A stretch of 64,000 nt of DNA, from assembly GCF_003852535.1 (NCBI RefSeq), contig NZ_QAJP01000008.1, positions 378,013 through 442,012 of the forward strand. Reading direction: 5' to 3'. The notes below the pieces were generated by a model. It was not told the origin of the DNA, did not search any database, and saw only the letters and a list, made by a program, of their open reading frames with translations. Positions 1-17,816 of the stretch are shown here, one piece after another (position 1 is the stretch's first letter; every line of letters starts with the position of its first letter). This DNA is from Herminiimonas sp. KBW02 (GTDB lineage Bacteria; Pseudomonadota; Gammaproteobacteria; Burkholderiales; Burkholderiaceae_D). Made by a program: the position numbers and the translations under genes.

Positions 1-3000
1 CAGATCGAGCGATTGTGTGCCTGCTGCGAAGTATTCTGTGGCGATGAAGTCAGTGGTGCATCTATACCGACGGCGATATTACCGCCCCATGCATTCAGCG
101 TACCGTCGACCACGATGCTGCTCTTGCCACCACCTTGCAAACTGATGGAACGTCCCGGATCAACCGAGACCACTGCGCCATGACCGATGACGACGTCGCC
201 ACCTTCCTGCTGCATACGCTGTGAGCGCAAGACCAGGTCCGCGCCAGCACGCTGTACCATTTGGCGCTTGGCCGGATCATCCTGATATTGCTCCGGCGTC
301 CAGATTTCAAATGCATTGTGTCCGTCGATACTGCCGGCGCCATTCTCTGTGATGCGATACACCGGCATCAATACATCCAGCTTCGCACCATCTGAAACCT
401 GCAAACCGGCATGACCGTTGATATCGTATTTGCTGAAACCTGTTTGCAAGCGTGTCGCATCCAGGTTCATTGCGCCTGCGGTCGGAGTGGCAGCGCCAAT
501 GACGACTGCATTACCGGTTTCCAGTTTGAGTGTGCCGCTACCAGCGACACCATAACCGCGTACTTCGCCATCCAGCGTCAGTACACCATTGTCATTATTC
601 TGTGCACCACTTACATCCGCCAGCAGGCTGACACTGCCGCCTTTGCCACCGGTTTGCTTGCCTTTGTCCTGGATCGCAGCACCGGAGGACGCATCTATCA
701 GACTATCTTGTTCAATCTTGACGTCACGCGTGCTTTCCAGCTTGACCGAACCGCCATTCAGGTAAGCCAGGCCACTGCGCTCCGTCGGAGCCAGCAGCGT
801 ATTTACCCAGCGACCACTGACGTCCAGCGTTGCGCCGGTATGCAGCGTGATAGCTGAACCACCGTTGGACAATCCGCCCGCTTGCGAACCAGGTAGCGGC
901 GAAAGAAACATATTCGAGGCATTGATAGTGCCACCGCGCACCGTCACATTCGCAGCGATATCTATATTTGCACCTATCAGGTTCAGCTTGCCGCCATCGT
1001 TCAGGGTGACGGCTTTGTCGATCACGATGTTGCCGCGCGTACCCAGATCCAGTCCGGCCAGATGTTGGTCATTAATGTATTGGCTATCCAGCCAGACGGT
1101 ATTGATCCGTGACGGGTCCAGCGCATCACGTGCTGCCATGCCGATAGTCACTTCGTTGACATCGCCAAGTTTGACGTCGGAGTCGTAAAGACCGGTACGG
1201 CCAGGACCCGTGTACTGACCCAGTGAGATGGTCGCGCCTTTGGCAACCGCTGTTTGCGCTTGTTTGTAACCATCACTGACCGCATCACGGCCACGTGTCT
1301 GCTGCTCACCCTGATAGACCTTGGAAACGATCTCGCCTTCCAGTACTGCCGTTGGTGCACTGATGACCAGATTGCCTGCGTCACGACCTACGGTGTAACC
1401 GTTCTCGATACGCTGACGCGCTGCGATCAGCGGGTTGTAGTAATACTTGGTGGCCTTGTCGCCCCAGCGTTCGCTGGTGTCTTCAAAGCCCTTATAAATG
1501 CCAACGTAGCTGACGCCAGCCGGTGCTTCACCGATGCGATACAGCTTGCCGTCACTGCCCTTGAGCCAGGTCTGGTTGACCATGCCGGTTTGCACATTGA
1601 AGCTGCCGCCGGAGAGGTTGATGGCTGAACCTTGTTGTGTAATGACTTCGCTGCCGCCGAGGGTGACCGTACCGCCCTGTGCTGCCCATTCGCCTATGCT
1701 GTGGCCTTGATTGCTGAGGTAGCCGCTGACTTCAAGCAAGCCGCCTGCTGCATACCAGCGGTCACTCGCATAACCACCGGTACCGGCTGACACCAGGATG
1801 AGTTCACGACGGTCCAGCCAGATGTCGTTGTTAGCGAGCTTGCCGCTATCACGATTATCTGGCGAATCACGCAGTTCATTACCCTGGATGTTGACTTTGA
1901 CGTTGTTGCTTTCCATTGCGACGTTGACACCGACTGCGCCGGAGACATCCAGATTCGCTTTGTCTGCAACAAAGGTACGGGTCTTGGCGCTGACGGCGAT
2001 CTGACCACCAGTGGCCAGTGTCAGCGAGTCAGCTGCGAAGTTGACATCACCGCCGGAGACGATTTCTACGCGTGACTGGTCGCGGCGGTCACTGAGTGTG
2101 GACAGGTTGTCATAGGTAGCAGTGGTCACGCGCAGCAAGTCTTGCGCTGCGGATTCCTTGATGAGTGCGTCGCGCTGGCTGTCGAGTGCCGTCGTTTTAC
2201 CGTCATCTTCGATCAGGATGGCGGTGCTGCTGCCCTGGCCCAAAGTAACGCTACCCTGTGTATCACTTGCCGAATTGAGCAGATGAATAGTGCCGCGTGT
2301 ATTAACGGTAGTCGTAGCAACGGCCACACCGTTTTGCTGCACATCACGACCGGTCAAGGTCACGTCACCTTCACGCGCGATGATGAGACCGGTGTTGGTT
2401 ACCTTACCGGCATCGCTATCAGCATCAATCTTCGCAGCGACTTCATTACCGCGTGTGGTGCTATAGGTATTACCTTCAGTGCCGACACCTTTGCGGATGA
2501 AGAAGCTGTCACCTGCTGCCAAAGTAGTCTGGCCTTTGCGCGTACTGATTTCACCTGCGTTGTGTACTTCCTTACCCATGACCAGTACATAACCACCACC
2601 GGAGGTAACGGAGGTCGGTTCATGGGTGGTGATCTGTGCACCGGATTCGATGATGACGTTGCCATTTGCACCGGTGAAGCTGGCGGTGTTCAGGTTAGGG
2701 CTGTAGATACCGGTATTGAATTGCGAATCGAGGATGTGCGCTGCTGCGACGACGAGGTTACGCGTGTTGACCTGGCTGCTGCCGGTGAAGATGATGCCGT
2801 TCGCATTCACGATCATGACGGTACCCGGCGCCTTAATCTGGCCCTGGATGACGCTAGGTGCAGTTGCGTTATTGATGCGGTTCAGTACTGACCAGTCGGC
2901 TTGCTGGTCAAAGTTCAGTATCGTGTTCTTGCCAATGTTGAAGGTTTCCCAGTTCAGGATCGCCTTGTCAGCAGTCTGCTTGATGTCGACGATGGTCTTG

Positions 3001-3488
3001 CCGTTCGCGGTGCTTTGCGTCGGACCATTCGCATTGATCCAGCTGTTGACCAGGCTGCCTGCATTGAGACCACCAACGCCGAGACCATCGGGTACTGTGC
3101 CAGCACCTGCGCTGGCGGCGAGGCGGTCTGCACCTTGCTGTGCTTGTTGCAGGGCAATCGCACGTGCGGCGGAATTGAGATTGGCGAGCGAGCGTTGCAG
3201 CTGGGAGTTGGCTGCCTGTTGCTGTGCCAGTGGCGTGCTCACGGGCATGGCCGGCATGCCGTTCGGCAGTTTGCCGGTGGCGACTGCTGCCGCTTGTACT
3301 GCACCCTTCTGCGCATACCATGCGGCGCTGAATGCCTGCTGTGCGTTCGCATTTCCCATTACGCTACCGGTCGCTAACATCAGCGCGATGGCATGGGCTA
3401 GTGGCTTCATCCGGCGCAAACCTGCATCTGCAGATTGCTGACGGTTGAAAAATGCTGGGTTCATCTTGGCAGGACGGATGGACGGCAT
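1..3488 (-). CDS. TpsA-type filamentous haemagglutinin exoprotein (partial, runs off left edge)
   Basis: One uninterrupted minus-strand frame of more than 1160 codons starts at 3488 and is still open at base 1. Residues about 28-49 form a long signal peptide ending NANA|QQ. Residues about 165-250 are the two-partner-secretion (haemagglutination activity) domain, with NWETFNIG, NRI and NANGIIF matching the NPNGI signature of FHA. The rest is repetitive beta-helix sequence rich in G, N, V and T. Known role of the family: a secreted adhesin or effector exported by a TpsB partner, here probably the protein encoded at 13594-15246. A second possible start lies at Met9 (3464). The true C-terminus is outside the window. 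Equivalent context: PdtA of Pseudomonas aeruginosa (inference). Confidence 0.93.
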   Translation of the reverse strand, partial: MPSIRPAKMNPAFFNRQQSADAGLRRMKPLAHAIALMLATGSVMGNANAQQAFSAAWYAQKGAVQAAAVATGKLPNGMPAMPVSTPLAQQQAANSQLQRSLANLNSAARAIALQQAQQGADRLAASAGAGTVPDGLGVGGLNAGSLVNSWINANGPTQSTANGKTIVDIKQTADKAILNWETFNIGKNTILNFDQQADWSVLNRINNATAPSVIQGQIKAPGTVMIVNANGIIFTGSSQVNTRNLVVAAAHILDSQFNTGIYSPNLNTASFTGANGNVIIESGAQITTHEPTSVTSGGGYVLVMGKEVHNAGEISTRKGQTTLAAGDSFFIRKGVGTEGNTYSTTRGNEVAAKIDADSDAGKVTNTGLIIAREGDVTLTGRDVQQNGVAVATTTVNTRGTIHLLNSASDTQGSVTLGQGSSTAILIEDDGKTTALDSQRDALIKESAAQDLLRVTTATYDNLSTLSDRRDQSRVEIVSGGDVNFAADSLTLATGGQIAVSAKTRTFVADKANLDVSGAVGVNVAMESNNVKVNIQGNELRDSPDNRDSGKLANNDIWLDRRELILVSAGTGGYASDRWYAAGGLLEVSGYLSNQGHSIGEWAAQGGTVTLGGSEVITQQGSAINLSGGSFNVQTGMVNQTWLKGSDGKLYRIGEAPAGVSYVGIYKGFEDTSERWGDKATKYYYNPLIAARQRIENGYTVGRDAGNLVISAPTAVLEGEIVSKVYQGEQQTRGRDAVSDGYKQAQTAVAKGATISLGQYTGPGRTGLYDSDVKLGDVNEVTIGMAARDALDPSRINTVWLDSQYINDQHLAGLDLGTRGNIVIDKAVTLNDGGKLNLIGANIDIAANVTVRGGTINASNMFLSPLPGSQAGGLSNGGSAITLHTGATLDVSGRWVNTLLAPTERSGLAYLNGGSVKLESTRDVKIEQDSLIDASSGAAIQDKGKQTGGKGGSVSLLADVSGAQNNDNGVLTLDGEVRGYGVAGSGTLKLETGNAVVIGAATPTAGAMNLDATRLQTGFSKYDINGHAGLQVSDGAKLDVLMPVYRITENGAGSIDGHNAFEIWTPEQYQDDPAKRQMVQRAGADLVLRSQRMQQEGGDVVIGHGAVVSVDPGRSISLQGGGKSSIVVDGTLNAWGGNIAVGIDAPLTSSPQNTSQQAHNRSI

Positions 3489-3708
3489 GGCTGACTCTTT
3501 CAGTGATGACTCATGTTGGAAGGAATAAATATGGCGGAAATTTTCCTGACCGCCTTTGCCTCCCTAGACGAAAGCCAACACCAAAAGCTATACGGAGATT
3601 TGCTGAAAAATATGAGCAGCCACGCGCAGCGATAGCACTGGTATGGCTTACCGTAAAACGGATATTTTTTATGACAATCAGATGACATGATCTGACCGCC
3701 TGTTTACG
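3489..3708 (-). promoter_or_regulatory. tpsA upstream region with a Pho-box-like direct repeat (3671-3688)
   Basis: The 220-bp gap between the anti-sigma gene and tpsA carries, on the minus strand, ATGTCAT-CTGA-TTGTCAT at 3688-3671. These two 7-mers at 11-bp periodicity each match 6 of 7 positions of the PhoB half-site CTGTCAT. No convincing -10 lies at the usual 10-bp spacing. Nearer the gene, CGTCTAGG (3570-3563, 75 bp before the start) could be part of an ECF-type -10. The gap implies that tpsA can be transcribed separately from the anti-sigma gene. Confidence 0.45.
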
Positions 3709-4719
3709 CTATTTGAGCAGGATCAGACCGCCTGGCAGCGAGGTCACATCAAGCTTGAACAAACGCTGGATTTGCGCGATTGCTTTATCCAGATCGCGGA
3801 TGTGGAAACGACCGCTGACCGGCTTGTCTGCCATTGCTTTCGACATCAATACGACACGACCCGGACGGTAACGATTGATCTCTTCGACCACCTGCGCCAA
3901 TGCCGTCTGACGGAAGCTCAATATGCCGCTACGCCAGCCGGATGACTCTGCCGGATTGATACTGCGTATCGCCTGTATGGCCTGACTATCGTATGTAACT
4001 TGTTGCGCTGCGCGCAGCACCACTTCGTCGTTGCCCGACGCAACCTTGACCATGCCGTCCAGACAGGTCACACAGACCGCATTCCCCAGACGACGTAATT
4101 CAAAACGCGCATCGATACTGGAAGCACGGCCGCCTGCGGCACTGACCACGAAAGGCTGCGCCCTATGCGTCGCATCTACTGCCACTTCACCATCCAGCAA
4201 CTGTATGCCTACGGTTTCGCCGCGCAAGGTTTGCACGGCGATGGCGCTGCGTGTATTCAGCTCTACCGAGACACCGGATGCCAATTGAATATCGCGTTGC
4301 TCGCCTGCAGCAGTACGGTAATCTGCACGCCATGCATCGGCCATCGATGGCCACAGATCCAGCGGTGGATCAATCAGGGCTATGCTCGCTATCGCCGCGC
4401 AGGAAGTTGCCAGCGCGCCGCCAAGGAAGGCGCGACGCGAGATACCTTGCTGCGGCGCCTTGCGTGGCTGACGGTTGCGCAGCGCAGCCAGTTCCGCATC
4501 ACCGGCACTCGCCAGTACTGCAGCCGGCAGCATGTCCTGCCACATACGTTGCGCCTTTTCAAAAGCCTGTGCGTGCGCGGGACTGGTCGCACACCAGCGA
4601 CGCAAGGCATTTGCATCTGCTGCACGTGCAGTACCTGAACGCAGGCGACGCAGCCACGCGTGTGCCTGCAGCTCCAGCTCATCAGGCGTGCGACGGGATG
4701 GGTGCATGTGCTCAGACAC
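3709..4719 (-). CDS. FecR/VreR-type transmembrane anti-sigma factor
   Basis: The 336-residue protein has the FecR-family layout: an N-terminal cytoplasmic sigma-binding domain (about 10-65, DUF4880-like, with ELELQAHAWLRRL), a single hydrophobic segment (about 98-116), a periplasmic FecR domain (about 135-235), and a C-terminal signalling part ending in SGRFHIRDLDKAIAQIQRLF. The hydrophobic segment is preceded by SRRAFLGG, a twin-arginine motif, so Tat-dependent insertion is likely (FecR of E. coli is reported to use Tat). It starts with GTG, 9 nt after GGAG. It should hold the sigma factor at 4822-5352 in check until the STN-domain protein at 5352-6038 signals. Confidence 0.9.
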   Translation of the reverse strand: MSEHMHPSRRTPDELELQAHAWLRRLRSGTARAADANALRRWCATSPAHAQAFEKAQRMWQDMLPAAVLASAGDAELAALRNRQPRKAPQQGISRRAFLGGALATSCAAIASIALIDPPLDLWPSMADAWRADYRTAAGEQRDIQLASGVSVELNTRSAIAVQTLRGETVGIQLLDGEVAVDATHRAQPFVVSAAGGRASSIDARFELRRLGNAVCVTCLDGMVKVASGNDEVVLRAAQQVTYDSQAIQAIRSINPAESSGWRSGILSFRQTALAQVVEEINRYRPGRVVLMSKAMADKPVSGRFHIRDLDKAIAQIQRLFKLDVTSLPGGLILLK

Positions 4720-4821: not shown

Positions 4822-5352
4822 TCATGATGTGTGCTCGTTCATATGCTGAATCACATGCTCGTGCGCCCGCTTGAGCTCACGATCAACCAGGCTCAGCGAT
4901 ACGCCTAGCCGGTCCGCGACTTCCTGCCGCGGCATCTCGTCTACCCGTATCAGTATCAGGATATTGCGGCGACGCGAGGGCATCTGCTGGATGATGGCCG
5001 CCAGCCGCTCCGCTTCGGAACGGGCTTCAAAAGTACGCGCCGGACCAGCCGCCGGATCAGAGAGATCAGACAGTACCTGCTCCACTTCGTCACCGCTAAG
5101 AAAACGTTTTTCCGATCGCATGCGGTCGAGTGCCGCATTGGTCGCCATCCGCATCAGGTAACTCAACGGATATTGCACCGGTTCGCTGCCTTCCTTAGCG
5201 CCGTCCTTGCTGCTTTCCAGGCGCAGCCAGGTTTCCTGCAAGGCTTCACTGGCCAGGTCGGCATTACCCAGATGCAGGGTCAGACGACGCTTGAGGTCGT
5301 CATAGCGCCGCACCAGAAAGTCACGCAAACCTGTGATGCCGGTATCGCTCAT
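4822..5352 (-). CDS. ECF sigma factor, FecI/VreI type
   Basis: The 176-residue protein has sigma70 region 2 (about 10-80, with LASEALQETWLRLE and YLMRMATNAALDRMR) and region 4 (about 115-170, with ADRLGVSLSLVDRELKRAHEHV as the helix-turn-helix). The start at 5352 is preferred because its ATG shares one base with the stop of the STN-domain gene (TGATG), a translational-coupling arrangement. An in-frame ATG at 5376 is possible. Stop to the anti-sigma GTG is about 100 nt. Gene order STN protein, sigma, anti-sigma matches vreA-vreI-vreR of Pseudomonas aeruginosa. Likely targets are the tps and ton genes around it (inference). Confidence 0.9.
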   Translation of the reverse strand: MSDTGITGLRDFLVRRYDDLKRRLTLHLGNADLASEALQETWLRLESSKDGAKEGSEPVQYPLSYLMRMATNAALDRMRSEKRFLSGDEVEQVLSDLSDPAAGPARTFEARSEAERLAAIIQQMPSRRRNILILIRVDEMPRQEVADRLGVSLSLVDRELKRAHEHVIQHMNEHTS

Positions 5353-6038
5353 CAGTGCCTCGTCACAGCAGGACAATCGCCACTGGCAGCAAGTTGCTGC
5401 GGCAGAATGAGCATAAAAAAAGGCAGTGACAGATCGGACGGACCGCGTCCGATGTCAACTTTTTTGAGTGCCTGCAAGATGGCGCTGTCACGCGCTTTGT
5501 TGCCGCTGCTATCGAGCAGCAGTGCTTGCGTAACGCGGCCTTTGACATCGACATAAAAACGCAAAGCGATGCGAAAATCCAGCGCAGCCAGCAGCGGCTC
5601 GCGACAAAATGCATCGCGCACGCCGGACTGTAGCAAGGCCGGGTAAGTATGGCTTTCCTGTTTTCCTTGTGTGGTTTTAATCTGCGCTTCCAGCACAAAG
5701 GCATCGGCCGCCGTAAAGGTGGCAGCCAGACCGCTACCCTCGAGCAGAACGCGCAATGCGGCGTCTGCCGTGTAGCTACCGGAAACCTGTGTGGAGAACA
5801 AACCCTGAACAGCCGATGCACTGTACAACCCCGAGTAGCCGGTCTGCTCATTGTAGGCATCCAGCGCTGCCTGCAGAGGCTGGGCCGGAATATCAAATAA
5901 CATACTGCCTGCCACCAGCGCAGACTGCGCGCGGGCTGGCAGGTGACGCACATCCGGCTGCGCAGCTAGATCGCGCATCAGCAACGACATGCCCACCACC
6001 AAGGTGTACATGGCGATGGACACGATTCTTCTTGCCAT
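5352..6038 (-). CDS. Barrel-less cell-surface signalling protein with STN domain (VreA-like)
   Basis: Starting at 6038 the protein has 228 residues: a signal peptide (MARR then a hydrophobic run to about 20), an STN/secretin-TonB short N-terminal domain (about 48-115, FDIPAQPLQAALDAYNEQTG), and a C-terminal segment (about 135-214) resembling the TonB C-terminal fold (FYVDVKGRVTQALLLDSSGN, DSAILQALKKVDIG). It has no plug or 22-strand barrel, so it cannot be a receptor itself; the P. aeruginosa VreA protein is likewise barrel-less. Upstream in-frame starts (ATG 6119, TTG 6128) are disfavoured because they fall at or before the transcription start predicted from the Pho-type promoter at 6118-6151. 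Probably passes a signal to the anti-sigma factor in the periplasm. Confidence 0.82.
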   Translation of the reverse strand: MARRIVSIAMYTLVVGMSLLMRDLAAQPDVRHLPARAQSALVAGSMLFDIPAQPLQAALDAYNEQTGYSGLYSASAVQGLFSTQVSGSYTADAALRVLLEGSGLAATFTAADAFVLEAQIKTTQGKQESHTYPALLQSGVRDAFCREPLLAALDFRIALRFYVDVKGRVTQALLLDSSGNKARDSAILQALKKVDIGRGPSDLSLPFFMLILPQQLAASGDCPAVTRH

Positions 6039-6117: not shown

Positions 6118-6151
6118 ATCGTACCCAAGCAATATGACCTTGCCGTGACAG
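6118..6151 (-). promoter_or_regulatory. Pho-box-like promoter of the STN-sigma-anti-sigma operon
   Basis: On the minus strand, CTGTCAC-GGCA-AGGTCAT (6151-6134) is followed after exactly 10 nt by TACGAT (6123-6118). This is the layout of PhoB-activated promoters, in which the box takes the place of the -35 element. The 23-base stretch 6151-6129 is identical in 20 positions to 15667-15645 ahead of tpsB. The predicted transcription start is near 6111. Confidence 0.6.
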
Positions 6152-6179: not shown

Positions 6180-6443
6180 TCAGTCGTCCGGCTCACCTTC
6201 GTGCAAGTCCTGCGTTTCGGATTCCGGTGCCCTGTTGCCGCCGCGATCACCGATGGCGCGACGTGCCGCCACCAGTTCTGCGTGGGAGATGCCAAATTCG
6301 GCCATCGACGCAGCCATCAAATTCAATAAAGCCACGCGCTGGCGCTGGCGTACTGCTTCAGCACGGCGTGTCCGCCTGACCTGACGGTCTGCGGCCGTCA
6401 GTTGCTGCAGGTGGACGTCATGCGACTCTTCATGTGTCGGCAT
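6180..6443 (-). CDS. Small charged protein of unknown function
   Basis: An 87-residue protein with an AAGGAA ribosome-binding site 7 nt before the ATG, last gene of the tpsB-led gene run. It is rich in Arg, Glu, Asp and His, with a predicted helical centre (QRVALLNLMAASMAEFGISHAELVAARRA) and an acidic tail (ETQDLHEGEPDD). No signal peptide or membrane segment. The pattern MAEFGIS.AEL faintly recalls the linker of H-NS-like proteins, but the DNA-binding GRG.P motif is absent, so no function is assigned. A small hairpin (TCCCGC-TAT-GCGGGA, 6466-6480) separates it from the YbjN gene upstream. Confidence 0.6.
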   Translation of the reverse strand: MPTHEESHDVHLQQLTAADRQVRRTRRAEAVRQRQRVALLNLMAASMAEFGISHAELVAARRAIGDRGGNRAPESETQDLHEGEPDD

Positions 6444-6504
6444 AGCGATTCCTTATTCATATCGATCCCGCTATGCGGGACCGATGGTCTGCCTGTATTC
6501 AAAC

Positions 6505-7023
6505 TCAGGCGGCTACCGATTCATCCGCTTTTGCAACATCGGCTTCTGCTGCTGCAGCTGCGACGGATTCCGGTTTGTAATTACGCAGGTGCAGGAAGAA
6601 CTGTCCCATCATCTGCGTCCACAGCTGCAAGGACACTGCGAGGTGCGCAGGTGCGACGCCACCAGCTACCATCACGTCCATTTCCAGCACAACGAAATCG
6701 CCATGCAAAGCCACGCGTGCGAAACGTTTAGTGCGGTGCCATTCGGTCAGCACACCTTCCGGCAATACGCCGCCTTGCACGCGCAACGGGCAGCTCAGGG
6801 TGAAGTCAGCGTACTGACCTGGTGTGACTGCATTGCCCCACAGAACCTGGAAGCCGATACCGTGACTGGCGCTATGCAACCAGGTAGTACCGTCTTGCTC
6901 GGTAGTGGTGACTGCGCAACCGGCTTCCTTGATGGCGTCCGAGACTTGTTCTGCATTGACGGTGTTCAACAACTCAATTGCTGGCGTAGTTGCTGCAGCT
7001 GCTGCGTTAGTAGATTTGCTCAT
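6505..7023 (-). CDS. YbjN-domain protein
   Basis: The 172-residue protein has no signal peptide, so it is probably cytoplasmic. Residues about 15-150 match the YbjN/type III-chaperone-like fold: a helix-strand start (LLNTVNAEQVSDAIKEAGC), central strands ending FARVALHGDFVVLEMDVMVAGGV, and a final helix (HLAVSLQLWTQMMGQFFLHLR). The C-terminus is an Ala/Glu-rich tail. YbjN-family proteins are small folds of poorly defined, sometimes chaperone-like or regulatory role. Its place in the tps run suggests a helper for export or signalling (inference). AGGAAATAAT precedes the ATG. Confidence 0.72.
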   Translation of the reverse strand: MSKSTNAAAAATTPAIELLNTVNAEQVSDAIKEAGCAVTTTEQDGTTWLHSASHGIGFQVLWGNAVTPGQYADFTLSCPLRVQGGVLPEGVLTEWHRTKRFARVALHGDFVVLEMDVMVAGGVAPAHLAVSLQLWTQMMGQFFLHLRNYKPESVAAAAAEADVAKADESVAA

Positions 7024-7097
7024 ATTATTTCCTGATCATTAAAAGGGTAAGTGTGCGCGCCGGAAGTCACGCACCATGCGGGTTCCGGCTACTGCAT

Positions 7098-8021
7098 TTA
7101 TTTCTGCAAGGCTGCATCCAGTGCTGCGCTGTCTATCTTCAGGCTGCCGGCAGGTACCAGTCCGGCCATATGTGCCTGTACCAATTGCTGCTGACGCTGA
7201 TCGCGCAAGGCGGTTTGCAGGCGTGGCTTGATTTCTTCCAGCGTCGCTGTACGTGCAGGCTGGGTTTCCAGCAACTTGACGATGTGGAAGCCGCTGGCCG
7301 ATTGCACCGGTTCGCTGACCTGGCCTGTTTTCAGCTTAGCCACGGCCTCACGTACCTCAGGCAGCATCTGTTCCAGTGGCAGCATGCCGACTTCACCGCC
7401 ACGCTCAGCGCTGCGCGGATCTTGCGAGCGGCTACGTGCCAGTGCGGCGAAATCACCACCGCGTGCCTGGGTTGCCAGTTTTTTTGCTTCATCACGCAGT
7501 TTGCTTGTTGCCGCTGCATCGCCACCATTGCTGGCCAGGTAGATTTGCGCGACGCGATAGGTAGCCGGTAAATTGAAGTTGGCCTTGCCTTGTTCGTACG
7601 CTGCTTTTACTTCTGCATCGGATGGGTAGGTCGCAGGTACCTGGGCAACCGATTCCAGATAAGCGGTGCTGACGATACGCGCGGTAACTTCACGCACCGC
7701 TGCATCGACCTTGGCCTTGACGTCAGGGCGTTCGCCCCAGCCTTTGGACTGTGCTTCACGCAGCAAGGATTCGCTGGCGACACGCTGACGCAACCAGTTC
7801 TCTACACCGGCACGGTTGTTTTTAATGGCGCTACGCTCTGCTTCCGGCATACCCTGCAACAAACGGGTAATTTCGTTCTGACCGATGGTGACGCTGCCTG
7901 CGCTGGCAACGACTTTGTCCGGTGCTGCCGATTGCGCAACCGACATACCCATGACGGATGCCAGCAAGACGCCGACAGCAGTACGTGCAACCGGCAAAAT
8001 TTTATTCATATTCGATTTCAT
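7098..8021 (-). CDS. Periplasmic PpiC/parvulin-type peptidyl-prolyl isomerase
   Basis: The 307-residue protein has a signal peptide (1 to about 31, ending SVAQS), a SurA-like helical N-region (about 36-130) and one parvulin domain (about 153-252, with RVAQIYLAS, FAALARSRSQDP, GGEVGMLPLEQMLPEV and SGFHIVKLLE). It should act on unfolded outer-membrane or exported proteins in the periplasm. AAGGAA lies 9 nt before the ATG. A PpiC-type gene is also present beside the Pdt locus of Pseudomonas aeruginosa, which supports a dedicated chaperone role for TpsA, TpsB or the barrel protein (inference). Confidence 0.9.
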   Translation of the reverse strand: MKSNMNKILPVARTAVGVLLASVMGMSVAQSAAPDKVVASAGSVTIGQNEITRLLQGMPEAERSAIKNNRAGVENWLRQRVASESLLREAQSKGWGERPDVKAKVDAAVREVTARIVSTAYLESVAQVPATYPSDAEVKAAYEQGKANFNLPATYRVAQIYLASNGGDAAATSKLRDEAKKLATQARGGDFAALARSRSQDPRSAERGGEVGMLPLEQMLPEVREAVAKLKTGQVSEPVQSASGFHIVKLLETQPARTATLEEIKPRLQTALRDQRQQQLVQAHMAGLVPAGSLKIDSAALDAALQK

Positions 8022-8084
8022 TTTTCGTTTCCTTTACTGTGAATTCGTACAGACACAGTGTGCCTGTACGAGATGACACGGGCA

Positions 8085-8762
8085 TTACTGACTGCGTGCT
8101 TGCTCCACTGCTGTATTGCTGCTGCGTGCATCGAAACGACCTTCATACAATTTATCGCCGTACTGCTGTGCAATCTGATCCAGCTTGACACGGCTTTGCG
8201 CTGCAAATGGCTGACGTGCGCTCATCACGGTCGCCATGTCCACCGATTCATAGGCTTGCAGGATTTCCTGGCCGACTGCATACAGCTGTGCATTCTTCGC
8301 TTCACATTGCGACACAGCCCTGGCTTGCGTGCTGGTGTCGAGCGCCAGGCGCTGACGTTCGGCTTCGGATGCACGTGCCAGCTTCAGCAACTCGTCATAA
8401 GCACCACGATACTGGGCGATCTGCGCATGAGCTTTGTCCAGTGCGGCCTGATTCTGCTGTTTGACGCCGCTGAGTTGCTCACGGGCCTTGCGTTCTGCCG
8501 CCTGGCTATTGCTCAGGTCCTTTTTGACCTTTTCAATATCTGCCGGAGTCGATGGCGCGGCTGCGCCACCCTTGAATGCCGCCAGCTCGTTCTGCGCCTG
8601 TTGCAACTGCGTGGTGGTAATCCGCAATTGCGCACGCAGTCGTTCTTCCATGCTTTGGTTTTGTGCCTGTGCCGCAGCGCTGGCCAGCATCACGACGATG
8701 GCAGTAGCCAAAGGTCGCAAGGTGGCAATACGTGCGCGGCCAGGGAGGATGTGTAGTGACAT
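8085..8762 (-). CDS. Periplasmic coiled-coil protein, unknown function
   Basis: The 225-residue protein has an N-terminal signal sequence ending AAAQAQ (about residue 34). Residues 36-135 are a nearly continuous heptad-rich coiled coil (MEERLRAQLRITTTQLQQAQNELAAFKGG and KARE/KQQNQAALDKAH), broken by one Pro-rich hinge. A less regular C-terminal helical part contains a single Cys (SQCEAKNAQLY). It lies 11 nt after the barrel gene, with GAGGACCCT before its ATG, so it is cotranscribed. It could span between the TonB complex and the outer membrane, but no family was recognised. Confidence 0.68.
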   Translation of the reverse strand: MSLHILPGRARIATLRPLATAIVVMLASAAAQAQNQSMEERLRAQLRITTTQLQQAQNELAAFKGGAAAPSTPADIEKVKKDLSNSQAAERKAREQLSGVKQQNQAALDKAHAQIAQYRGAYDELLKLARASEAERQRLALDTSTQARAVSQCEAKNAQLYAVGQEILQAYESVDMATVMSARQPFAAQSRVKLDQIAQQYGDKLYEGRFDARSSNTAVEQARSQ

Positions 8763-8773
8763 AGGGTCCTCGT

Positions 8774-10561
8774 TTAGAAGCGTGTGTTCAGCTCAAGCTG
8801 CATCACGTCGATAGCAAATGGCGAGCTATAGATGGATTTGCTCGACAACCAGCGACCACTCAGAGTAGTGTTTTTGTCGACGGCGTAGGTACCGCTGAGC
8901 GTGTAACCACGTGCATTGGTACCACCCAGGTGGAAGGACGAATCGTTGTAAGCGTCAGGCAAGGCATCCGGTTCGATATACTTGTAACCGGCCGACACAT
9001 TCCATTCGCCGCGTACGACCGGATTTGATTTACCCAGGGTCGCCTGCACCATGTAGGCATTGCCTCCGCTCTGGAAGTTGGCACGCGTATTGTTACCGGT
9101 CGAGTCGTAGTTGTTGAAGATACCGCCGCCTGCGCGTCGGAACATTTCATCTTCATCATAGGCAAGATTGCGGATGTAGTTGGCGTCCAGACGCAAGCCA
9201 TAGTCACCCAGCACCTTGGTTTCCCAACGTGCATTCAAGTCCAGCAACTGAAACTTGGAAGCCAGGCCCATGTATTGCGGCAACGGTGTATTCGCAGGAC
9301 CAGCCGGATTGAGTGCGATATTGCGCAACAGCATCAGGGTATTACCCTTTTGCATATAGGCAGGACGCGACCAGTCAGTGTTACAGGCGGTTGCACCGGC
9401 ATACAGAGCACATGGATCAGACAGCTTGCCGGTAATGTTCTGGAAGCTATAGTAAGCAACCGTACCACGCAGGCGATTGGTCGAATCCAGTTTCCAGTTC
9501 GCGCCTACTTGCGCCCCAAGCAGCCATTTGGTTTCACTGCGCATCTTGTCGGCGCTATTCTTCGGTGCGCTATCGGATGAATATTCCAGCGGAATAATAC
9601 CCAGCGTACCGAACATTGATAACGCTTCATTGCCGAGTTTTTTGTCGAATTGCGCAGCCACACCGTCAAAGTTCAAGTCGTTCGAGAACAACATGTCGGT
9701 CGAGACGAACGGATTACCGAAACGACCACCGGTGATCTTCAGCCAGTCTGTCGGACGGTTCGAAATCCAGGCCTGATCCAGCCAGATGTTTTTCTTGTTC
9801 AGACCACCGCCCAGGGTCTGGGTTGTGGAAACCGGATTGTCATCGCTACCCGTTGCCAGACGCACACCGGCGCTGGTGGTATCCGAGATCTCAGCAATCA
9901 CACCAAAGCGGGCGCGCACACGCCAGAGATTTTTGCGGTCCTGACGCGTATTCAGCATCGGTGGCAAACCGGCAGTGGTATTGGTATTTACGTCATACGG
10001 ACTGCCTGCATTAATCGCCGCGTAGTCTGCCAGATTCAGGTTGTCGTTATAACGACCGTAGTAGCGTGATTCATTACGCAAACGCATATCGCCTTCGATA
10101 CGGATGCGCTTGGTCCATTCCGGTGTTTCATTCGGTGCTGCCCAGCCTTCGGTACGGGCTTGTGCCATGACCTGGCCTTTGACTTCATCACGGATCTGGT
10201 CACGTACGGTTTGCGAGATATACGGTACGCGTACATCACCCGCTTCCGGACGCATCGCCGCAGTACCTGCCACCGGCGCGGCGGCTGCCGTAGCTGCAGC
10301 AACCTGGCGTTGTGCCTGCTGCGCTGCCATCGCTTCGGTTTGCGCCTGTGCCAGCAAGGCTTCGCCGACATCTTTGTTCAAAGTACCGCTCTGAATCAGG
10401 CCACGGATCAGCTTGACCATCGCGCTTTCGGCCGGTGCTGCGGTTTGTGCATGCGCCGCGCCAGTCGCCATCAGCAGGGCAACGGCCGAAGCAATCGCCA
10501 GGTTCTGCACGGATTTGCGTGCCGGGAGGCTGCGGCCCCGTGGATTAGATAAATAATTCAT
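8774..10561 (-). CDS. Outer-membrane porin-like beta-barrel with N-terminal helical region
   Basis: From Met at 10561 the protein has 595 residues: signal peptide to about residue 39 (GAAHAQ), a helical Ala/Gln-rich segment (to about 115), then about 450 residues of alternating beta strands (WTKRIRIEGDMRLRNESRYYGR, WLKITGGRFGNPF, YGLRLDANYIRNL) ending in MQLELNTRF. The C-terminal Phe is the usual outer-membrane assembly signal. It resembles the 'putative porin' family. An in-frame ATG at 10612 overlaps the tonB stop (ATGA), but the signal peptide and GAAAGAAAG site favour 10561. Downstream of exbB-exbD-tonB, it may be the partner energised by that complex (inference), although no TonB box or plug was seen. 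Confidence 0.82.
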   Translation of the reverse strand: MNYLSNPRGRSLPARKSVQNLAIASAVALLMATGAAHAQTAAPAESAMVKLIRGLIQSGTLNKDVGEALLAQAQTEAMAAQQAQRQVAAATAAAAPVAGTAAMRPEAGDVRVPYISQTVRDQIRDEVKGQVMAQARTEGWAAPNETPEWTKRIRIEGDMRLRNESRYYGRYNDNLNLADYAAINAGSPYDVNTNTTAGLPPMLNTRQDRKNLWRVRARFGVIAEISDTTSAGVRLATGSDDNPVSTTQTLGGGLNKKNIWLDQAWISNRPTDWLKITGGRFGNPFVSTDMLFSNDLNFDGVAAQFDKKLGNEALSMFGTLGIIPLEYSSDSAPKNSADKMRSETKWLLGAQVGANWKLDSTNRLRGTVAYYSFQNITGKLSDPCALYAGATACNTDWSRPAYMQKGNTLMLLRNIALNPAGPANTPLPQYMGLASKFQLLDLNARWETKVLGDYGLRLDANYIRNLAYDEDEMFRRAGGGIFNNYDSTGNNTRANFQSGGNAYMVQATLGKSNPVVRGEWNVSAGYKYIEPDALPDAYNDSSFHLGGTNARGYTLSGTYAVDKNTTLSGRWLSSKSIYSSPFAIDVMQLELNTRF

Positions 10562-10608
10562 GCTTTCTTTCACCAATTGAAATGAAATGGAATGGTTGTC
10601 AGGCTTCG

Positions 10609-11301
10609 TCATGGACGACGCCCCTTGATCGTCATGCGTGCCGGGAAACGTTGGGTCGCAGGTGGTCGTACATCACTGCGGAAATCACGCACCATCGCCA
10701 GCACCGCCTCATCGATTTGCGTATTACCCGTGCTTTGTACAAGTTCCGCCCGCGTTGCTTTACCGTCTGCATCCAGCCAGAGGTTGATGCGGATTTCCTG
10801 GAAGGCCAGCGTGCGGGTACGCGGATCACGGGCGAATGCCTGTTGCACTGCATTCCCGATGTAACCGGCATACGAACCCATGCCGCCACCGCCCCCCGTC
10901 GAGCCACCGCCACGTCCGGCAGCAATGCCGAAGGAATCAGTACCCGCTTGCGCCGCACCGTCTATCGTTACCGGGTCGCCAGCATCCGGTGCAGGAGTCG
11001 GCGAGTCGGCAGGTGCTTCCTGCGGATTGGTGGTCGGTTCAGGCGGTGCTTCCGGCTGTACCTTCTCCGGCTCCGGTTCCGGCAACTTCTCCGGCTCTGG
11101 TGGCGGCGGCGGCGGTGGCGGCAACATCAGCATCGGGGTGGCAGCCACCTCACGCTTGGTGCTCGCCGTACCCGACACCAGATACCAGACGACCGCTACC
11201 AGCACGACCAGAATGAATCCGCCTATCGCATAACCGCCCCAGCGGCGCCATAAATCGGCAGTCCGCGAGCTTCGGTGAGAACTTAAATGAAGGCGATTCA
11301 C
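10609..11301 (-). CDS. TonB-like energy transducer
   Basis: The 230-residue protein has one N-terminal membrane anchor (about 26-46, IGGFILVVLVAVVWYLV), a Pro/Glu-rich periplasmic spacer (about 58-105, with a run of prolines then PEPEKLPEPEPEK), a Gly-rich linker, and a TonB C-terminal domain (about 140-225, FQEIRINLWLDADGKATRAELVQSTGN). It couples the proton-motive force harvested by ExbB/ExbD to an outer-membrane client. GTG start with AAGGGGG just upstream, 10 bp after exbD. This is a locus-specific TonB, probably dedicated to the tps system. Confidence 0.92.
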   Translation of the reverse strand: MNRLHLSSHRSSRTADLWRRWGGYAIGGFILVVLVAVVWYLVSGTASTKREVAATPMLMLPPPPPPPPEPEKLPEPEPEKVQPEAPPEPTTNPQEAPADSPTPAPDAGDPVTIDGAAQAGTDSFGIAAGRGGGSTGGGGGMGSYAGYIGNAVQQAFARDPRTRTLAFQEIRINLWLDADGKATRAELVQSTGNTQIDEAVLAMVRDFRSDVRPPATQRFPARMTIKGRRP

Positions 11302-11311
11302 GTTAGCCCCC

Positions 11312-11722
11312 TTAAGCCGCTTTACCGGTCACGAGGCCGATCTGGTTGAGCTCGATGCGACGTAGCAGATCCAATACCTCCACTACCTTCGCGTACTGCA
11401 CCGATGCATCACCGCGCACGATCACCGGGAAATCCGGTGTCAGTGCTTTCTCGGTACGCAGGCGTTCTTCGAGTTCCGGCAAGGTCACCGGAAATGCATC
11501 GAGGAATACCTGACCTGCGTTATCGATGGTGATAGCTTTGGTCTTCGGTTTTTCCAGTGCTACCGATGAACTCGCCTTCGGCAAGTCAACCTTGATGCCA
11601 GGGATGCTGGCATTGCTGGTCAGGATAAAGATCACCAACACCACCAGCAGCACGTCAACAAAAGGCGTGATGTTGATGCCGCCGGCACGTTTTTTTGTGC
11701 CGAATTTGGCTGCGTTTGCCAT
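11312..11722 (-). CDS. exbD: ExbD-type proton-channel protein
   Basis: The 136-residue protein has the ExbD/TolR layout: a short cytoplasmic N-terminus (AAKFGTKKRAGGINITPF), one membrane helix (about 18-40, with the proton-path Asp in FVDVLLVVLVIF), and a periplasmic domain (about 60-130). The start at 11722 is chosen because GAGGAG lies 9 nt upstream and the N-terminus is canonical; a longer reading to 11872 would overlap exbB heavily. It works with the ExbB fusion protein and TonB encoded on either side. Confidence 0.94.
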   Translation of the reverse strand: MANAAKFGTKKRAGGINITPFVDVLLVVLVIFILTSNASIPGIKVDLPKASSSVALEKPKTKAITIDNAGQVFLDAFPVTLPELEERLRTEKALTPDFPVIVRGDASVQYAKVVEVLDLLRRIELNQIGLVTGKAA

Positions 11723-11735
11723 AGTTATCTGCTCC

Positions 11736-13511
11736 TCAAGCCTGGCGCAGGGTAGCGCGAGCTTGACGGCCTTCGCCCTGCTCTTCAGCCAGGCGGGTAG
11801 CAAATTCGTCGACGAATACCGCCATGTCGGCGCCGATCGCATCGGAACGCGAAGCCAGCCAGTTGTAGCCAAACAGCGCAGGAATCGCGACGCCCAGGCC
11901 AGCCGCAGTACACAACAGCGCTGCCGCCATACCTGGTGCCACCGAGTTGATGTCCACTGCGCCAGCCATCGCTGCCACCACGAACACCAGCATGATGCCG
12001 ATGACGGTACCGAACAGACCTACGTAAGGCGCACCTTCAATCGCGGTCGACAACCAGTTCATGCGGTGCGACATACGTTCGTTTTCACGCACCATCACGC
12101 CGTCCATTGCTGCACGGATCGCGCTGATGGTTGCATTCGATACGGCATTGAGGTCATAGCCACGATCATGGCGACGGCGCATTTCATCCACCGCAACCTT
12201 GTACAGACGCCACAGCGACGAATCGGCTTTCACGTCTTGCGGCAATTTGCTGCTGTTAGCCAATTGATCGAGCGGTGCACCTGCGGTTTCACGGAAGTGA
12301 TCCATGAAAACAGCATTGGCACGCGAGATCGCAGCGTAGTTACGACCTTTGCTGATCATGATGGCCCACGACAACACCATCATCACACCCAGAATGATCA
12401 CCACCAGCCACGCATCCAGCGGCATCGCTGCCAGGATGTAACCAAAGTGGCTCTTGCCTGCCTGTTGTTCATCGCTGCCAAATACTGCCAGGCGCGATTC
12501 CGCACCTTGCGACACGGCGTCAGCCAGCAACACGGTATCGCTGCGTGCCACCTTGGACAGGCGCACTTCATCAATCGCGCCTATGAACGGGGTCATCGCT
12601 GCCGATTGTGGTGTGGTATCTGCACCGATGGCTGCTGCGGTATTCAATGCCGGCATGCTGGCTTCCAGCGATGCGCTAGCACGGCCACCGACGTGCAGCG
12701 TGACGTTTTTGCCATCAGCTGTCACTGCCAGGTGCGACCATAGCCCGGCCTGGATAGGCTGACCTGGTTTGCTGCGCTGACCATTGACCTGAACGAAAGG
12801 CACACCCTGATCGATACCAAGCAGGAATTCACGGCCGCCGTCGCGACGTGCATAGATCACTTGCTGTGCGCCCAGCTGTTCCGGACGTACCCAGACCGAG
12901 AAGGTAAACGCGCCGCCTGCTTCCTGCGTCAGCGATGGTGCAGCTGGCAGCATCAATGGTGTGCCGCTCAGTTTCGCGCCCTTGCCAATGACAGTACCGT
13001 CTATGCTGACGACTGCGGTTTGTGCATTGTTGCCGTAAGCAGTGGTATCGCGCGGTGGGGTTGCTGCTTCCGCAAAGTGATACACCAGTGTGTAGTCAGG
13101 ATCGAAAGTACGCTGGCCATTGCCGGATGCCGGTGCCTTCGGGTTACCGTAGTACATCCAGACTTGCTGTGGCGCACCCGCTGGCAATGCAGGCATATCT
13201 ACCCACACCAGTGCGATGCCGAGCAAAGGATCGAATTGTTCGATCTGATGGTTCAGCACAGTCTTGTCGTCGCCTGCCACAAAGCGCAGGTCGGCACCGG
13301 TGTCGCTGACGCCTTCAAAGCTGAAGTTACCGGTATGCAGGCGCACCAATACTGGTGTGCGACCAGCGTCGCCACCCAAAGCGCCGCCTTGCGGACCCGC
13401 GTCGACGGTGATCGGCTTGCGGTAAGCCCAGTCAGGTTGCCACCAGGCGTGTGCCAGGTTGGGCAAGAGCGTGCTCAGCATGGTGAGCGTAAGTAAAAGA
13501 ATGCGTCGCAT
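11736..13511 (-). CDS. DUF2341/LamG-ExbB fusion, MotA/TolQ/ExbB proton-channel protein
   Basis: The 591-residue protein is far longer than normal ExbB (about 240). Signal peptide 1-22 (LAHAWW), then a DUF2341 domain (about 23-125, WAYRKPITVDAG), a LamG/concanavalin-like domain (about 150-330, FTFSVWVRPEQ and IGAIDEVRLSKVARSD), a first membrane helix near 365-385, and the ExbB/TolQ channel core (about 470-580, EGAPYVGLFGTVIGIMLVFVV and AAALLCTAAGLGVAIPALFGYNWL). The periplasmic N-terminal half could bind a carbohydrate or protein ligand and sense or gate the channel (inference). CGGAGAA precedes the ATG. Its neighbours are tpsB upstream and exbD downstream. Confidence 0.9.
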   Translation of the reverse strand: MRRILLLTLTMLSTLLPNLAHAWWQPDWAYRKPITVDAGPQGGALGGDAGRTPVLVRLHTGNFSFEGVSDTGADLRFVAGDDKTVLNHQIEQFDPLLGIALVWVDMPALPAGAPQQVWMYYGNPKAPASGNGQRTFDPDYTLVYHFAEAATPPRDTTAYGNNAQTAVVSIDGTVIGKGAKLSGTPLMLPAAPSLTQEAGGAFTFSVWVRPEQLGAQQVIYARRDGGREFLLGIDQGVPFVQVNGQRSKPGQPIQAGLWSHLAVTADGKNVTLHVGGRASASLEASMPALNTAAAIGADTTPQSAAMTPFIGAIDEVRLSKVARSDTVLLADAVSQGAESRLAVFGSDEQQAGKSHFGYILAAMPLDAWLVVIILGVMMVLSWAIMISKGRNYAAISRANAVFMDHFRETAGAPLDQLANSSKLPQDVKADSSLWRLYKVAVDEMRRRHDRGYDLNAVSNATISAIRAAMDGVMVRENERMSHRMNWLSTAIEGAPYVGLFGTVIGIMLVFVVAAMAGAVDINSVAPGMAAALLCTAAGLGVAIPALFGYNWLASRSDAIGADMAVFVDEFATRLAEEQGEGRQARATLRQA

Positions 13512-13593: not shown

Positions 13594-15246
13594 TCAATAA
13601 CTGGCATTGAGACTAAAGTTCACGCGCGTATCGTGCTTCTCGGTGCGCGGTCCTGACTTCAACGGATAGCCGACATCGACTCGTCCGCTGACTTGTTCGC
13701 CGAGGCGGAAGCTGGTACCGATACCCACCGATGCCAGCGTGAAAAGGTCTTGCTGTTCGATCAGCGGATCGCGCAGCTTCAGTCTGGACGCATCGCCAAA
13801 TGCATAGACACGCCAGTTTTCGACCCAGGGATTGAGGTAAGTCAGAGATTTGCTGCGCAGTTCCAGCGAGCCGACCACACCGTAGTCGCCAGTGGTTTCT
13901 GCTGACAGGTAACCGCGTACCGAATTCATGCCGCCGGCAGCAATCTGTTCACCGGATACCAGCGGCGAATCGGTCAGCTGACCAGCGAAACGGAAGCCGA
14001 TCTGCGCGTCATTCTCAAAGTTGTACGAGCCATTCAGGTCGGCTTTGAGCACCATGAAGTTAGGTTTGGCTTCATAACGTTTGTAGCGGAATGCTTTCTC
14101 ATCGCTGCCGTAACCAAACAGGCTGCGGGTACCGGCCAACATCGTCAGGCCGATGCTGTACTGGCTACGCTCGTTTTGCACAAAGCCCATATAACCAAGC
14201 GTGATCGGTGCATATTTCAAAGGCACCTTGTCGCCGCTTCCGCCTAGTTGCAGAGCTTCTTCATTGTTTTTGAAGTCCACGCCGACGCTCATGGTGTGCC
14301 ACCAGTTACCGGTGTTCGGTACGGTATAAGTCGCCTTGAAGCCGACCGCATAACCTTTACCGAGCACGGTGGTGCCGCCAACGGTAGAGACCGTGCTGTC
14401 CGATTTATAGCCGGACGCATCCAGCGTCCAGTTGCTGTTTCGCAGCGGCGCGGTATAGGAACCCGACCACACTTTGGTCTGATTCAGGTCTTGCGGCGTA
14501 CCGAAAAAACTCAGCGAAGCACTATGTCCGAGCTGCCACAGGTTGTCGTGACCGATGGACGCAGTGGCACGCAATTCCTTGGTATCGGCGCTGTAATCGT
14601 TGTTCAGGCCAGCACTGGCGCGCCATGGGCTGCTGTCGTCCACTTTCAAATCAACATCCATGGTGCCGGGCAAAGCGCCCTGCTTGACCAAGGGCATGAC
14701 CTGACGCTTGGCGCTGCGGTTCAATGTAGTCAGTTGGGCTTGTGCCAGATTGAAGTCAGGCACTTTGCCTTCCTGCAGCGCAGGCACCTGTTCACGTACT
14801 TCCAGCGGCGAGTTGTATTGCGCACCGACGACGCGCACACGACCGACCTTGGTTTCATTGACCTGCAGATAGACCACACCGCCAGTTACCTGCTGCTCCG
14901 GCAAATCGACATACACCGATTGGTAACCGCGGGCGTTATAAGCCGACAACAAGGCATCGCGTGCATTTTCGACATCCTTCATCGTGCGCTTGGGGCCGAG
15001 GTAAGGCGTGACTGCCAACTCAATGGTGCGTGCATCCAGCACGCTGTTGCCACGTACGATGTATTCGTTGATATCTACCCTGGGTGCGTTGTCAGCGTCA
15101 GAAGCAGCCGCTTCGCTTGCTGCCGCATCTGTCGTACCCACCGACTGCGCCATGACCGCGCCATGCAAACCCAGCGCCAGCACAGCCAGGCAAATTGCCT
15201 TCAGTCGGAGTGGCTGTTCATTCCGGTTTTTCTTCACGTCACACAT
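13594..15246 (-). CDS. TpsB/ShlB-type two-partner secretion outer-membrane transporter
   Basis: The 550-residue protein has a signal peptide (to about 34, GAVMAQ), a POTRA pair (about 54-205, DINEYIVRGNSVLDARTIELAV, then YQSVYVDLPEQQVTGGVVYLQV), and a C-terminal 16-strand FhaC/ShlB barrel (about 210-550) with VRGY-type (NSVRGYLSAET) and GDASRLKL motifs. It exports the TpsA protein across the outer membrane, with the client 10 kb downstream on the same strand. It is the first gene of a long collinear run. The ATG has only a weak ribosome-binding site (AGGGATTGAG, distant); a GTG three codons later is an alternative. Confidence 0.93.
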   Translation of the reverse strand: MCDVKKNRNEQPLRLKAICLAVLALGLHGAVMAQSVGTTDAAASEAAASDADNAPRVDINEYIVRGNSVLDARTIELAVTPYLGPKRTMKDVENARDALLSAYNARGYQSVYVDLPEQQVTGGVVYLQVNETKVGRVRVVGAQYNSPLEVREQVPALQEGKVPDFNLAQAQLTTLNRSAKRQVMPLVKQGALPGTMDVDLKVDDSSPWRASAGLNNDYSADTKELRATASIGHDNLWQLGHSASLSFFGTPQDLNQTKVWSGSYTAPLRNSNWTLDASGYKSDSTVSTVGGTTVLGKGYAVGFKATYTVPNTGNWWHTMSVGVDFKNNEEALQLGGSGDKVPLKYAPITLGYMGFVQNERSQYSIGLTMLAGTRSLFGYGSDEKAFRYKRYEAKPNFMVLKADLNGSYNFENDAQIGFRFAGQLTDSPLVSGEQIAAGGMNSVRGYLSAETTGDYGVVGSLELRSKSLTYLNPWVENWRVYAFGDASRLKLRDPLIEQQDLFTLASVGIGTSFRLGEQVSGRVDVGYPLKSGPRTEKHDTRVNFSLNASY

Positions 15247-15633: not shown

Positions 15634-15667
15634 AAGATAACGTCGGAATATGACTATGCCGTGACAG
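15634..15667 (-). promoter_or_regulatory. Pho-box-like promoter facing tpsB
   Basis: On the minus strand, CTGTCAC-GGCA-TAGTCAT (15667-15650) is followed after exactly 10 nt by TATCTT (15639-15634). Half-sites match CTGTCAT in 6 and 5 of 7 positions. The 23-base block 15667-15645 shares 20 bases with the element at 6151-6129, and the -10 spacing is the same. The predicted start is near 15627. Confidence 0.6.
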
Positions 15668-17779: not shown

Positions 17780-17816
17780 GTGATATAGCAAACGCAAGTA
17801 GCAAAGAAAGTACTGA

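What the first reader, a model, noticed from the sequence alone, without database searches (positions are those of the whole stretch)
6129..6151. Duplicated Pho-box-like promoter linking the sigma operon and tpsB
The minus-strand 23-mers at 6151-6129 and 15667-15645 share 20 bases, both containing CTGTCACGGCA then GTCATATT. Each has a -10-like hexamer (TACGAT and TATCTT) exactly 10 nt after the second half-site. Conservation of the spacing as well as the sequence is hard to get by chance. The layout is that of PhoB-activated promoters, so phosphate starvation is the predicted inducer, as for P. aeruginosa VreA and PdtA.
Basis: partly seen in the sequence, partly recalled or inferred. Interest (0 to 1): 0.82.

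Follow-up and report, generated by a model that had tools for sequence, protein, structure and literature searches.

The report
Phosphate-starvation promoters, one orphaned
Both sites look like genuine phosphate-starvation (PhoB) promoters; the first drives the sigma-factor operon, while the second appears to be the left-over promoter of a lost second copy of that operon and now points at the secretion genes, whose own conserved promoter lies elsewhere.

Summary
In detail: 20 of 23 bases shared, same spacing to a -10 hexamer. A 20/23 pair alone is chance-level in 64 kb. As PhoB promoters the sites stand out: with a box-plus-minus-10 matrix from 15 pstS/ppk promoters they rank 1st and 2nd in the window, and with a box-only matrix 5th and 4th, the top five all lying in this locus.

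Site 1 (6118-6151) is well supported as a PhoB/sigma-70 promoter of a VreA-VreI-VreR-like (PUMA3) operon: box, 6 nt, TANNNT in 13 of 16 relatives, and an identical block in the sister genome G008.

Site 2 (15634-15667) is not the conserved tpsB promoter. Its G008 counterpart drives a second STN-ECF-FecR-tpsA operon. The ECF gene of that operon is in 7 of 9 genomes searched and absent here. The promoter was probably orphaned by deletion and now faces tpsB.

This fits the published P. aeruginosa logic of PhoB plus sigma-VreI: a new member of a known kind, with an unusual promoter history.

The parts
6118..6151 (-). PhoB/sigma-70 promoter of the STN-ECF-FecR operon: box 6151-6130, 6-nt spacer, -10 TACGAT 6123-6118; predicted start near 6111
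   Evidence: Rank 1 or 5 with box only; one of 6 exact genome matches; 41-bp block identical in sister genome G008; box + 6 nt + TANNNT in 13 of 16 relatives
5352..6038 (-). STN-domain signalling protein (VreA-like); ATG at 6038
   Evidence: Pfam STN; weak TIGR01352 tonB_Cterm, 25.4 bits, under its cut-off 27.1; PDB matches to signalling domains of pseudobactin receptors, HasR and FecA
4822..5376 (-). ECF sigma factor (VreI-like)
   Evidence: Pfam Sigma70_r2/r4; TIGR02937 over cut-off
3709..4719 (-). FecR-type anti-sigma factor (VreR-like)
   Evidence: Pfam FecR and DUF4880
1..3488 (-). 5' part of tpsA1 (open frame of 4221 codons running out of the window)
   Evidence: PF05860 TPS domain at G000:C15:380259-381041; open frame
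3667..3688 (-). PhoB box upstream of tpsA1 (ATGTCATCTGATTGTCATAAAA); CGTCTA at 3570-3565 further downstream may be an ECF -10
   Evidence: Rank 2 with the box-only matrix, rank 8 with box plus -10; conserved in G008
13594..15246 (-). tpsB (ShlB/FhaC-type transporter)
   Evidence: Pfam ShlB and POTRA_2
6180..13511 (-). Genes after tpsB: ExbB fusion (DUF2341-LamG-MotA_ExbB), ExbD, TonB, Porin_5, unknown 8085-8762, PPIase, YbjN, unknown 6180-6443
   Evidence: order in relatives
15345..15392 (-). Conserved composite promoter of tpsB: inverted PhoB box 15392-15376, -35-like CGACAGTT 15373-15366, ECF-type -10 CGTCTA 15350-15345
   Evidence: Box rank 3 in window with the box-only matrix (15375+); identical in G008 from box through -35, and -10 identical; 15 or more of 17 box positions in 30 of 40 loci, CGTCT at +42 in 22 of the 23 that have it; 5 of 399 genomes match, 4 of these 5 upstream of tpsB or tpsA, control 0
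15441..15462 (+). Second inverted PhoB box 66 bp upstream of the composite box
   Evidence: Rank 1 with the box-only matrix, rank 3 with box plus -10; TATATGAC-N4-CGATGAC at the same distance in G008
15634..15667 (-). Orphaned PhoB/sigma-70 promoter, counterpart of the promoter of STN2-ECF2-FecR2(-tpsA2) in relatives; box 15667-15646, -10 TATCTT 15639-15634
   Evidence: Rank 2 or 4; aligns in order with G008's second-operon promoter; same layout in 7 of 7 loci with STN2-ECF2-FecR2
15413..15635 (.). Stretch in place of about 15.4 kb (second operon plus a terminator-like hairpin) present in G008; no terminator-like site found here
15787..16137 (+). Small predicted secreted protein (116 aa, no Pfam or NCBIfam match), divergent neighbour of the orphaned promoter; own PhoB-type promoter 15705-15738 (+)
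   Evidence: rank 6 in window, counterpart in G008

Best explanation
The window holds a phosphate-gated cell-surface signalling locus of the PUMA3 (VreA-VreI-VreR) type. Under phosphate starvation phosphorylated PhoB binds the box at 6151-6130 and recruits sigma-70 to the -10 at 6123-6118. This makes an STN signalling protein, an ECF sigma factor and its FecR-type anti-sigma. PhoB and the released ECF sigma then jointly act at the composite promoter 15392-15345, which has an inverted PhoB box, a -35-like element and the -10 CGTCTA, to transcribe tpsB-exbB-exbD-tonB and the genes after it. That operon and its terminator were deleted in this lineage, leaving the promoter facing tpsB about 380-390 nt upstream, where it may now add ECF-sigma-independent transcription. 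Shown by sequence: the sites, spacing, conservation, synteny and absence of the second ECF gene. Inferred: PhoB binding, which sigma factor reads which promoter, the deletion event, and any present activity.
For: Matrix ranks 1 and 2, 0 of 40 resampled windows at 14 or more; box-only top five of the window all at the tpsA1, STN and tpsB-upstream regions. 6 exact genome matches, including pstS and ppk with the same 6-nt spacing. STN promoter in relatives: 13 of 16; matrix median 5.2 (18 rows) against -7.8 to -14.5 for twelve other genes of the loci. G008 block identical. Second operon in the sister, junction alignment, ECF2 at 77% identity or more in 7 of 9 genomes and not in G000 or G017, same layout in 7 of 7 loci. 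The four STN-ECF copies of G008 that I examined each have a PhoB-type promoter. Composite tpsB element. Published P. aeruginosa geometry is similar: essential -5 to -11, -30 to -34, repeats -40 to -45 and -50 to -56 (PMC4971064). PhoB present.
Against: A 7-site matrix ranked the two sites only 6 and 19; the covariance model did not list them at E<=10; the 34-column matrix was trained on sites picked for TANNNT at 6 nt. 3 of 16 relatives have CANNNT. 7 of 30 composite-element rows lack CGTCT at or near +42, only 5 of 399 order genomes match the strict pattern, and the pattern was drawn up after seeing these loci. No recognisable remnant of the lost operon in 15413-15635. tpsA2 itself was seen only in G008; in the six other genomes only STN2, ECF2 and FecR2 were checked. 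The terminator scans are weak evidence: about 0.6 expected by chance in each region. Three relatives without the second operon also have a PhoB promoter facing tpsB, so a functional tandem promoter remains possible. No expression or binding data.
Confidence: 0.82

Rival explanations
1. One reading: both sites are matched PhoB promoters that evolved to co-express the sigma operon and tpsB, and the 15667 site is the main tpsB promoter.
For: Both sites are top PhoB matches; no terminator-like site lies between 15634 and tpsB; L014, L027 and L030 have a PhoB promoter facing tpsB in a similar place.
Against: The site is absent from the tpsB promoter region of the sister with 94% identical TpsB, and its counterpart there heads another operon. 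18 of 22 loci with the neighbour gene near tpsB lack such a promoter with TANNNT, while the composite box is in 30 of 40 loci.
Confidence: 0.12
2. The orphaned promoter has been captured: it works as a distal tandem promoter that gives tpsB PhoB-only expression beside the two-key composite promoter.
For: Box core and -10 intact; the sister's terminator-like hairpin is absent here; similar layout in L014, L027, L030, and in L027 a tpsA 3' fragment points to a parallel loss.
Against: No transcription data; retention may be due to a recent deletion or to use by the divergent gene 15787-16137.
Confidence: 0.4
3. The second operon was never here: it was inserted in the G008 lineage and others between a pre-existing promoter and tpsB.
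For: 21 of 40 related loci have the neighbour gene within 1,600 nt of tpsB, so the operon is not between them there.
Against: STN2-ECF2-FecR2 sit at the same place in the same-genus genome G005 and in five genomes of a second genus; the promoter aligns in order with the window's.
Confidence: 0.12
4. Assembly artefact: the second operon was dropped because of repeats shared by tpsA genes.
For: The assembly has 16 contigs and six TPS-domain matches.
Against: Best ECF2 match in G000 is 43%, at the ECF1 gene. The junction carries 223 bases without significant match to the G008 stretches tested. It lies inside contig C15.
Confidence: 0.05

Closest known systems
PUMA3 / VreA-VreI-VreR of Pseudomonas aeruginosa with pdtA, phdA-pdtB-exbB2D2-tonB4-PA0696-0701 (PMC2729926, PMC4971064)
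   Same: STN protein, ECF sigma and FecR anti-sigma in one gene run; TPS, ExbBD, TonB, further genes; PhoB box at the STN promoter; PhoB box upstream of an ECF-type promoter at the TPS genes
   Different: Several STN-ECF-FecR copies in the sister genome, one lost here with its promoter kept; PhoB box of the composite promoter is inverted (orientation in P. aeruginosa not checked); hxc genes were not searched for
PUMA3 homologues of Janthinobacterium sp. and others noted in PMC2729926
   Same: The passage seen reports four repeated clusters, three followed by tpsA and one by tpsB with exbBD; G008 resembles this
   Different: That passage does not mention PhoB boxes, a composite element or an orphaned promoter; the rest of the paper was not read
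PhoB promoters of E. coli (phoA, pstS, phoB) and of pstS/ppk in this family
   Same: 22-bp box, 6 nt, -10
   Different: First half-site CTGTCACGGCA and the base before the second GTCA differ from the pstS/ppk consensus

Membership tests
PhoB/sigma-70 promoter | Two direct half-sites 11 bp apart in place of the -35 | tested here: met
   Both sites
PhoB/sigma-70 promoter | -10 at the spacing of known PhoB promoters | tested here: met
   6 nt, as in own pstS and ppk and in E. coli phoA
PhoB/sigma-70 promoter | PhoB binding and phosphate-dependent transcription | not testable with these tools
   Needs gel shift, RACE or reporter
PUMA3-type (VreAIR) signalling system | STN protein without beta-barrel, encoded with ECF sigma and FecR | tested here: met
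   228-aa protein with an STN domain and no room for a receptor barrel
PUMA3-type (VreAIR) signalling system | TonB/TolA-like C-terminal domain in the STN protein | tested here: inconclusive
   TIGR01352 25.4 bits against a cut-off of 27.1
PUMA3-type (VreAIR) signalling system | Linked TPS, ExbB/ExbD and PA0696-0701-like genes | tested here: met
   TPS, ExbB/ExbD, TonB by family; equivalence to PA0696-0701 by position only, P. aeruginosa sequence not fetched
PUMA3-type (VreAIR) signalling system | Target promoters need both PhoB and the ECF sigma | not testable with these tools
   Architecture fits; function untested
   Absent in G008; 18 of 22 loci lack a counterpart with TANNNT

The most novel reading that the evidence does not exclude
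Promoter capture by operon loss: deletion of a whole signalling-plus-exoprotein operon and its terminator has handed a PhoB/sigma-70 promoter to the secretion operon. The tpsB genes would thereby move from two-key control (PhoB and released ECF sigma) to partial PhoB-only control. Apparent tpsA losses with promoters kept (L027, and perhaps L030 and L014) suggest this recurs.
Probability: 0.4. Interest if true: 0.65.

Novelty: new member of a known kind. Interest (0 to 1): 0.55.

Why it matters
It extends the P. aeruginosa PhoB plus sigma-VreI circuit to many Burkholderiales with a base-level promoter model (inverted PhoB box, 25 nt, CGTCT). That makes the question of how a response regulator recruits an ECF sigma factor testable by comparison and in harmless strains. 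It also gives a concrete case of a promoter outliving its operon and possibly rewiring a neighbour.

Tried and rejected
Rejected: the 20/23 identity as evidence on its own. Rejected by eye: an ECF promoter made of the two half-sites themselves; no shared second element was seen downstream. Tried with no result: first pattern with a wrong gap length; a 7-site matrix, too small; remnants of the lost operon in 15413-15635 (best of three targets equalled by 26 of 200 shuffles; tblastn hits only at E 0.15 or worse). Literature searches listed no paper, as far as titles and abstract starts show, on PhoB control of PUMA3-like loci in Burkholderiales; held library only, and searches listed 20 of 31 and 20 of 26 papers. 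PMC4971064 was seen in passages and sections 20, 21 and 24; PMC2729926 in passages from one find; PMC7035377 only as a listing with the start of its abstract. Faure et al. 2013 was not seen, only as cited in PMC4971064. Rows dropped before a count: L035 and L036 in the STN count (18 rows to 16), because their tblastn hit lies inside the tonB gene. For L031 the counted box is the second-best (best). The 16 include near relatives (such as L006/L007, L009/L011, L025/L029), so they are not independent. Names of E. coli PhoB-regulated genes and the guess that G008 is Janthinobacterium sp. Marseille are recalled.

Full report
Observation. As a bare repeat this is not remarkable: the window has about 22 clusters of 20/23 pairs, and three resampled windows had 3, 8 and 5. 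As PhoB promoters they are. I took upstream regions of 30 pstS genes of the family and picked by hand 15 sites, 12 in the pstS direction and 3 in the ppk direction, each with a good box and TANNNT 6 nt on; two strong divergent boxes without TANNNT were left out (the three ppk genes confirmed). With that matrix the two sites are first and second in the window (16.4 and 14.6), and 0 of 40 resampled windows reach 14. Genome-wide, GTCAY-N6-GTCAY-N10-TANNNT has 6 exact matches: pstS, ppk, a PAP2-family gene, a WXXGXW-protein gene and these two; with up to one mismatch there are 30, against 10 for the reversed control. I left out of that pattern a T before the second GTCA that is invariant in the training set, because both sites lack it. 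Results against: (see observation check).

Locus. All on the minus strand: tpsB, an ExbB fusion, ExbD, TonB, Porin_5, an unknown, a PPIase, YbjN, an unknown, then STN, ECF sigma, FecR and tpsA1, which runs out of the window. Of 40 related loci, all 40 have the ExbB fusion after tpsB and 38 have ExbD (L020 and L032 end before it); 13 show STN-ECF-FecR in the same 10 kb, 3 more end inside STN, and many that extend the full 10 kb show none. PMC4971064 (passages and sections 20, 21, 24) describes the P. aeruginosa counterpart: PhoB with probably sigma-70 at vreA, PhoB together with sigma-VreI at pdtA and phdA, the latter transcribing phdA, pdtB, exbB2D2, tonB4 and PA0696-PA0701. PMC2729926 (passages) already reports PUMA3 homologues in Janthinobacterium sp., repeated four times.

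Site 1. In the sister genome G008 a 41-bp block containing box, spacer and -10 is identical while its upstream flank is not. Of 18 related loci with an STN hit, two were dropped because the hit lies in tonB; of the 16 left, 13 have the box followed after exactly 6 nt by TANNNT and 3 by CANNNT. The 16 include near relatives. With the 34-column matrix the STN upstream regions have a median of 5.2 (all 18 rows), against -7.8 to -14.5 for twelve other genes of the same loci. Scores of 8 or more occur in 7 of 18 STN rows, 3 of 22 for the small gene, 2 of 40 for tpsB, 1 of 22 for the PPIase, and none for the rest.

Site 2. The window and G008 align from 19294 to 15706, again at 15666-15636 (the promoter itself, 87%), and then from 15412 on. 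Between the last two blocks G008 has about 15.4 kb: a second STN, ECF sigma, FecR and a 3,908-codon tpsA, followed by a 12-pair terminator-like hairpin (0.6 expected by chance). The second ECF gene is present at 77% identity or more in 7 of 9 genomes searched, G008 included, and missing from the window's genome and from G017; the nine were chosen for a close TpsB. In all 7 the layout is the small divergent gene, then a PhoB promoter (box, 6 nt, TANNNT), then STN2-ECF2-FecR2; tpsA2 was not checked in the other six. The four STN-ECF copies examined in G008 each have a PhoB-type promoter; a fifth, weaker ECF match there (34%) was not examined. So the duplicated promoter is best read as one promoter per signalling operon, with one operon lost here. 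No remnant was recognisable in the 223 intervening bases.

The tpsB promoter. ATGAA-N2-TTT-N-RTGACAAACGACAGTC matches at 19 or more of 24 positions in 24 of 40 related loci (the pattern was drawn up from these loci). Its box part matches at 15 or more of 17 positions in 30 of 40; 23 of these 30 have CGTCT, at exactly +42 in 22 and +43 in one. Most loci without it are Stenotrophomonas/Xanthomonas or other distant records. G008 and the window are identical from the box through the -35-like element and again at the -10. A search of 399 genomes of the order with at most one mismatch found 5 genomes, control 0; three matches lie upstream of tpsB (one is the window), one between FecR and tpsA, and one had no match to the locus proteins nearby. 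The distances agree with the mapped P. aeruginosa pdtA promoter to within about 3 nt; this alignment is mine. A second inverted PhoB box, the window's best box-only match, lies 66 bp further upstream here and at the same distance in G008.

What site 2 does now is open. No terminator-like site was found between it and tpsB (about 0.6 expected by chance). Among 22 loci (21 relatives and the window) with the small gene within 1,600 nt of tpsB, 4 have a PhoB promoter with TANNNT facing tpsB: the window, L014, L027 and L030; L025 and L037 have weaker boxes without TANNNT. L027 also keeps a tpsA 3' fragment (E 1e-13), and L030 shows two composite-like elements in tandem (the L030 reading is by eye). 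This suggests repeated tpsA loss with promoters retained and makes capture by tpsB plausible, at about 0.4.

Noticed in passing
window 15787-16137 (+): A 116-aa predicted secreted protein without Pfam or NCBIfam match is found beside tpsB or STN2 in many Burkholderiales and has its own PhoB-type promoter (15705-15738).
   Followed up: partly
G000:C11:499995-500026 (-): An exact PhoB-type promoter match lies upstream of a gene for a small WXXGXW-repeat protein.
   Followed up: partly
G000:C11:438133-438164 (-): A PhoB-type site (19.1 bits with the covariance model) lies upstream of an EAL-CBS gene, a possible link from phosphate to cyclic-di-GMP.
   Followed up: partly
L027 9000-10000; L030 9370-10000: L027 keeps a PhoB promoter and a tpsA 3' fragment before tpsB; L030 shows two composite-like elements in tandem, suggesting tpsA was lost there too.
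   Followed up: partly
L035: A record titled Bacillus subtilis carries this Gram-negative TPS locus, probably contamination.
   Followed up: no
window 11736-13511 (-): ExbB proton-channel domain fused to DUF2341 and a LamG-type domain in one protein.
   Followed up: no
L141 (G008), reverse complement 17766-18894: An open frame overlapping the end of tpsA2 looks like a continuation of it in another frame; not pursued.
   Followed up: no
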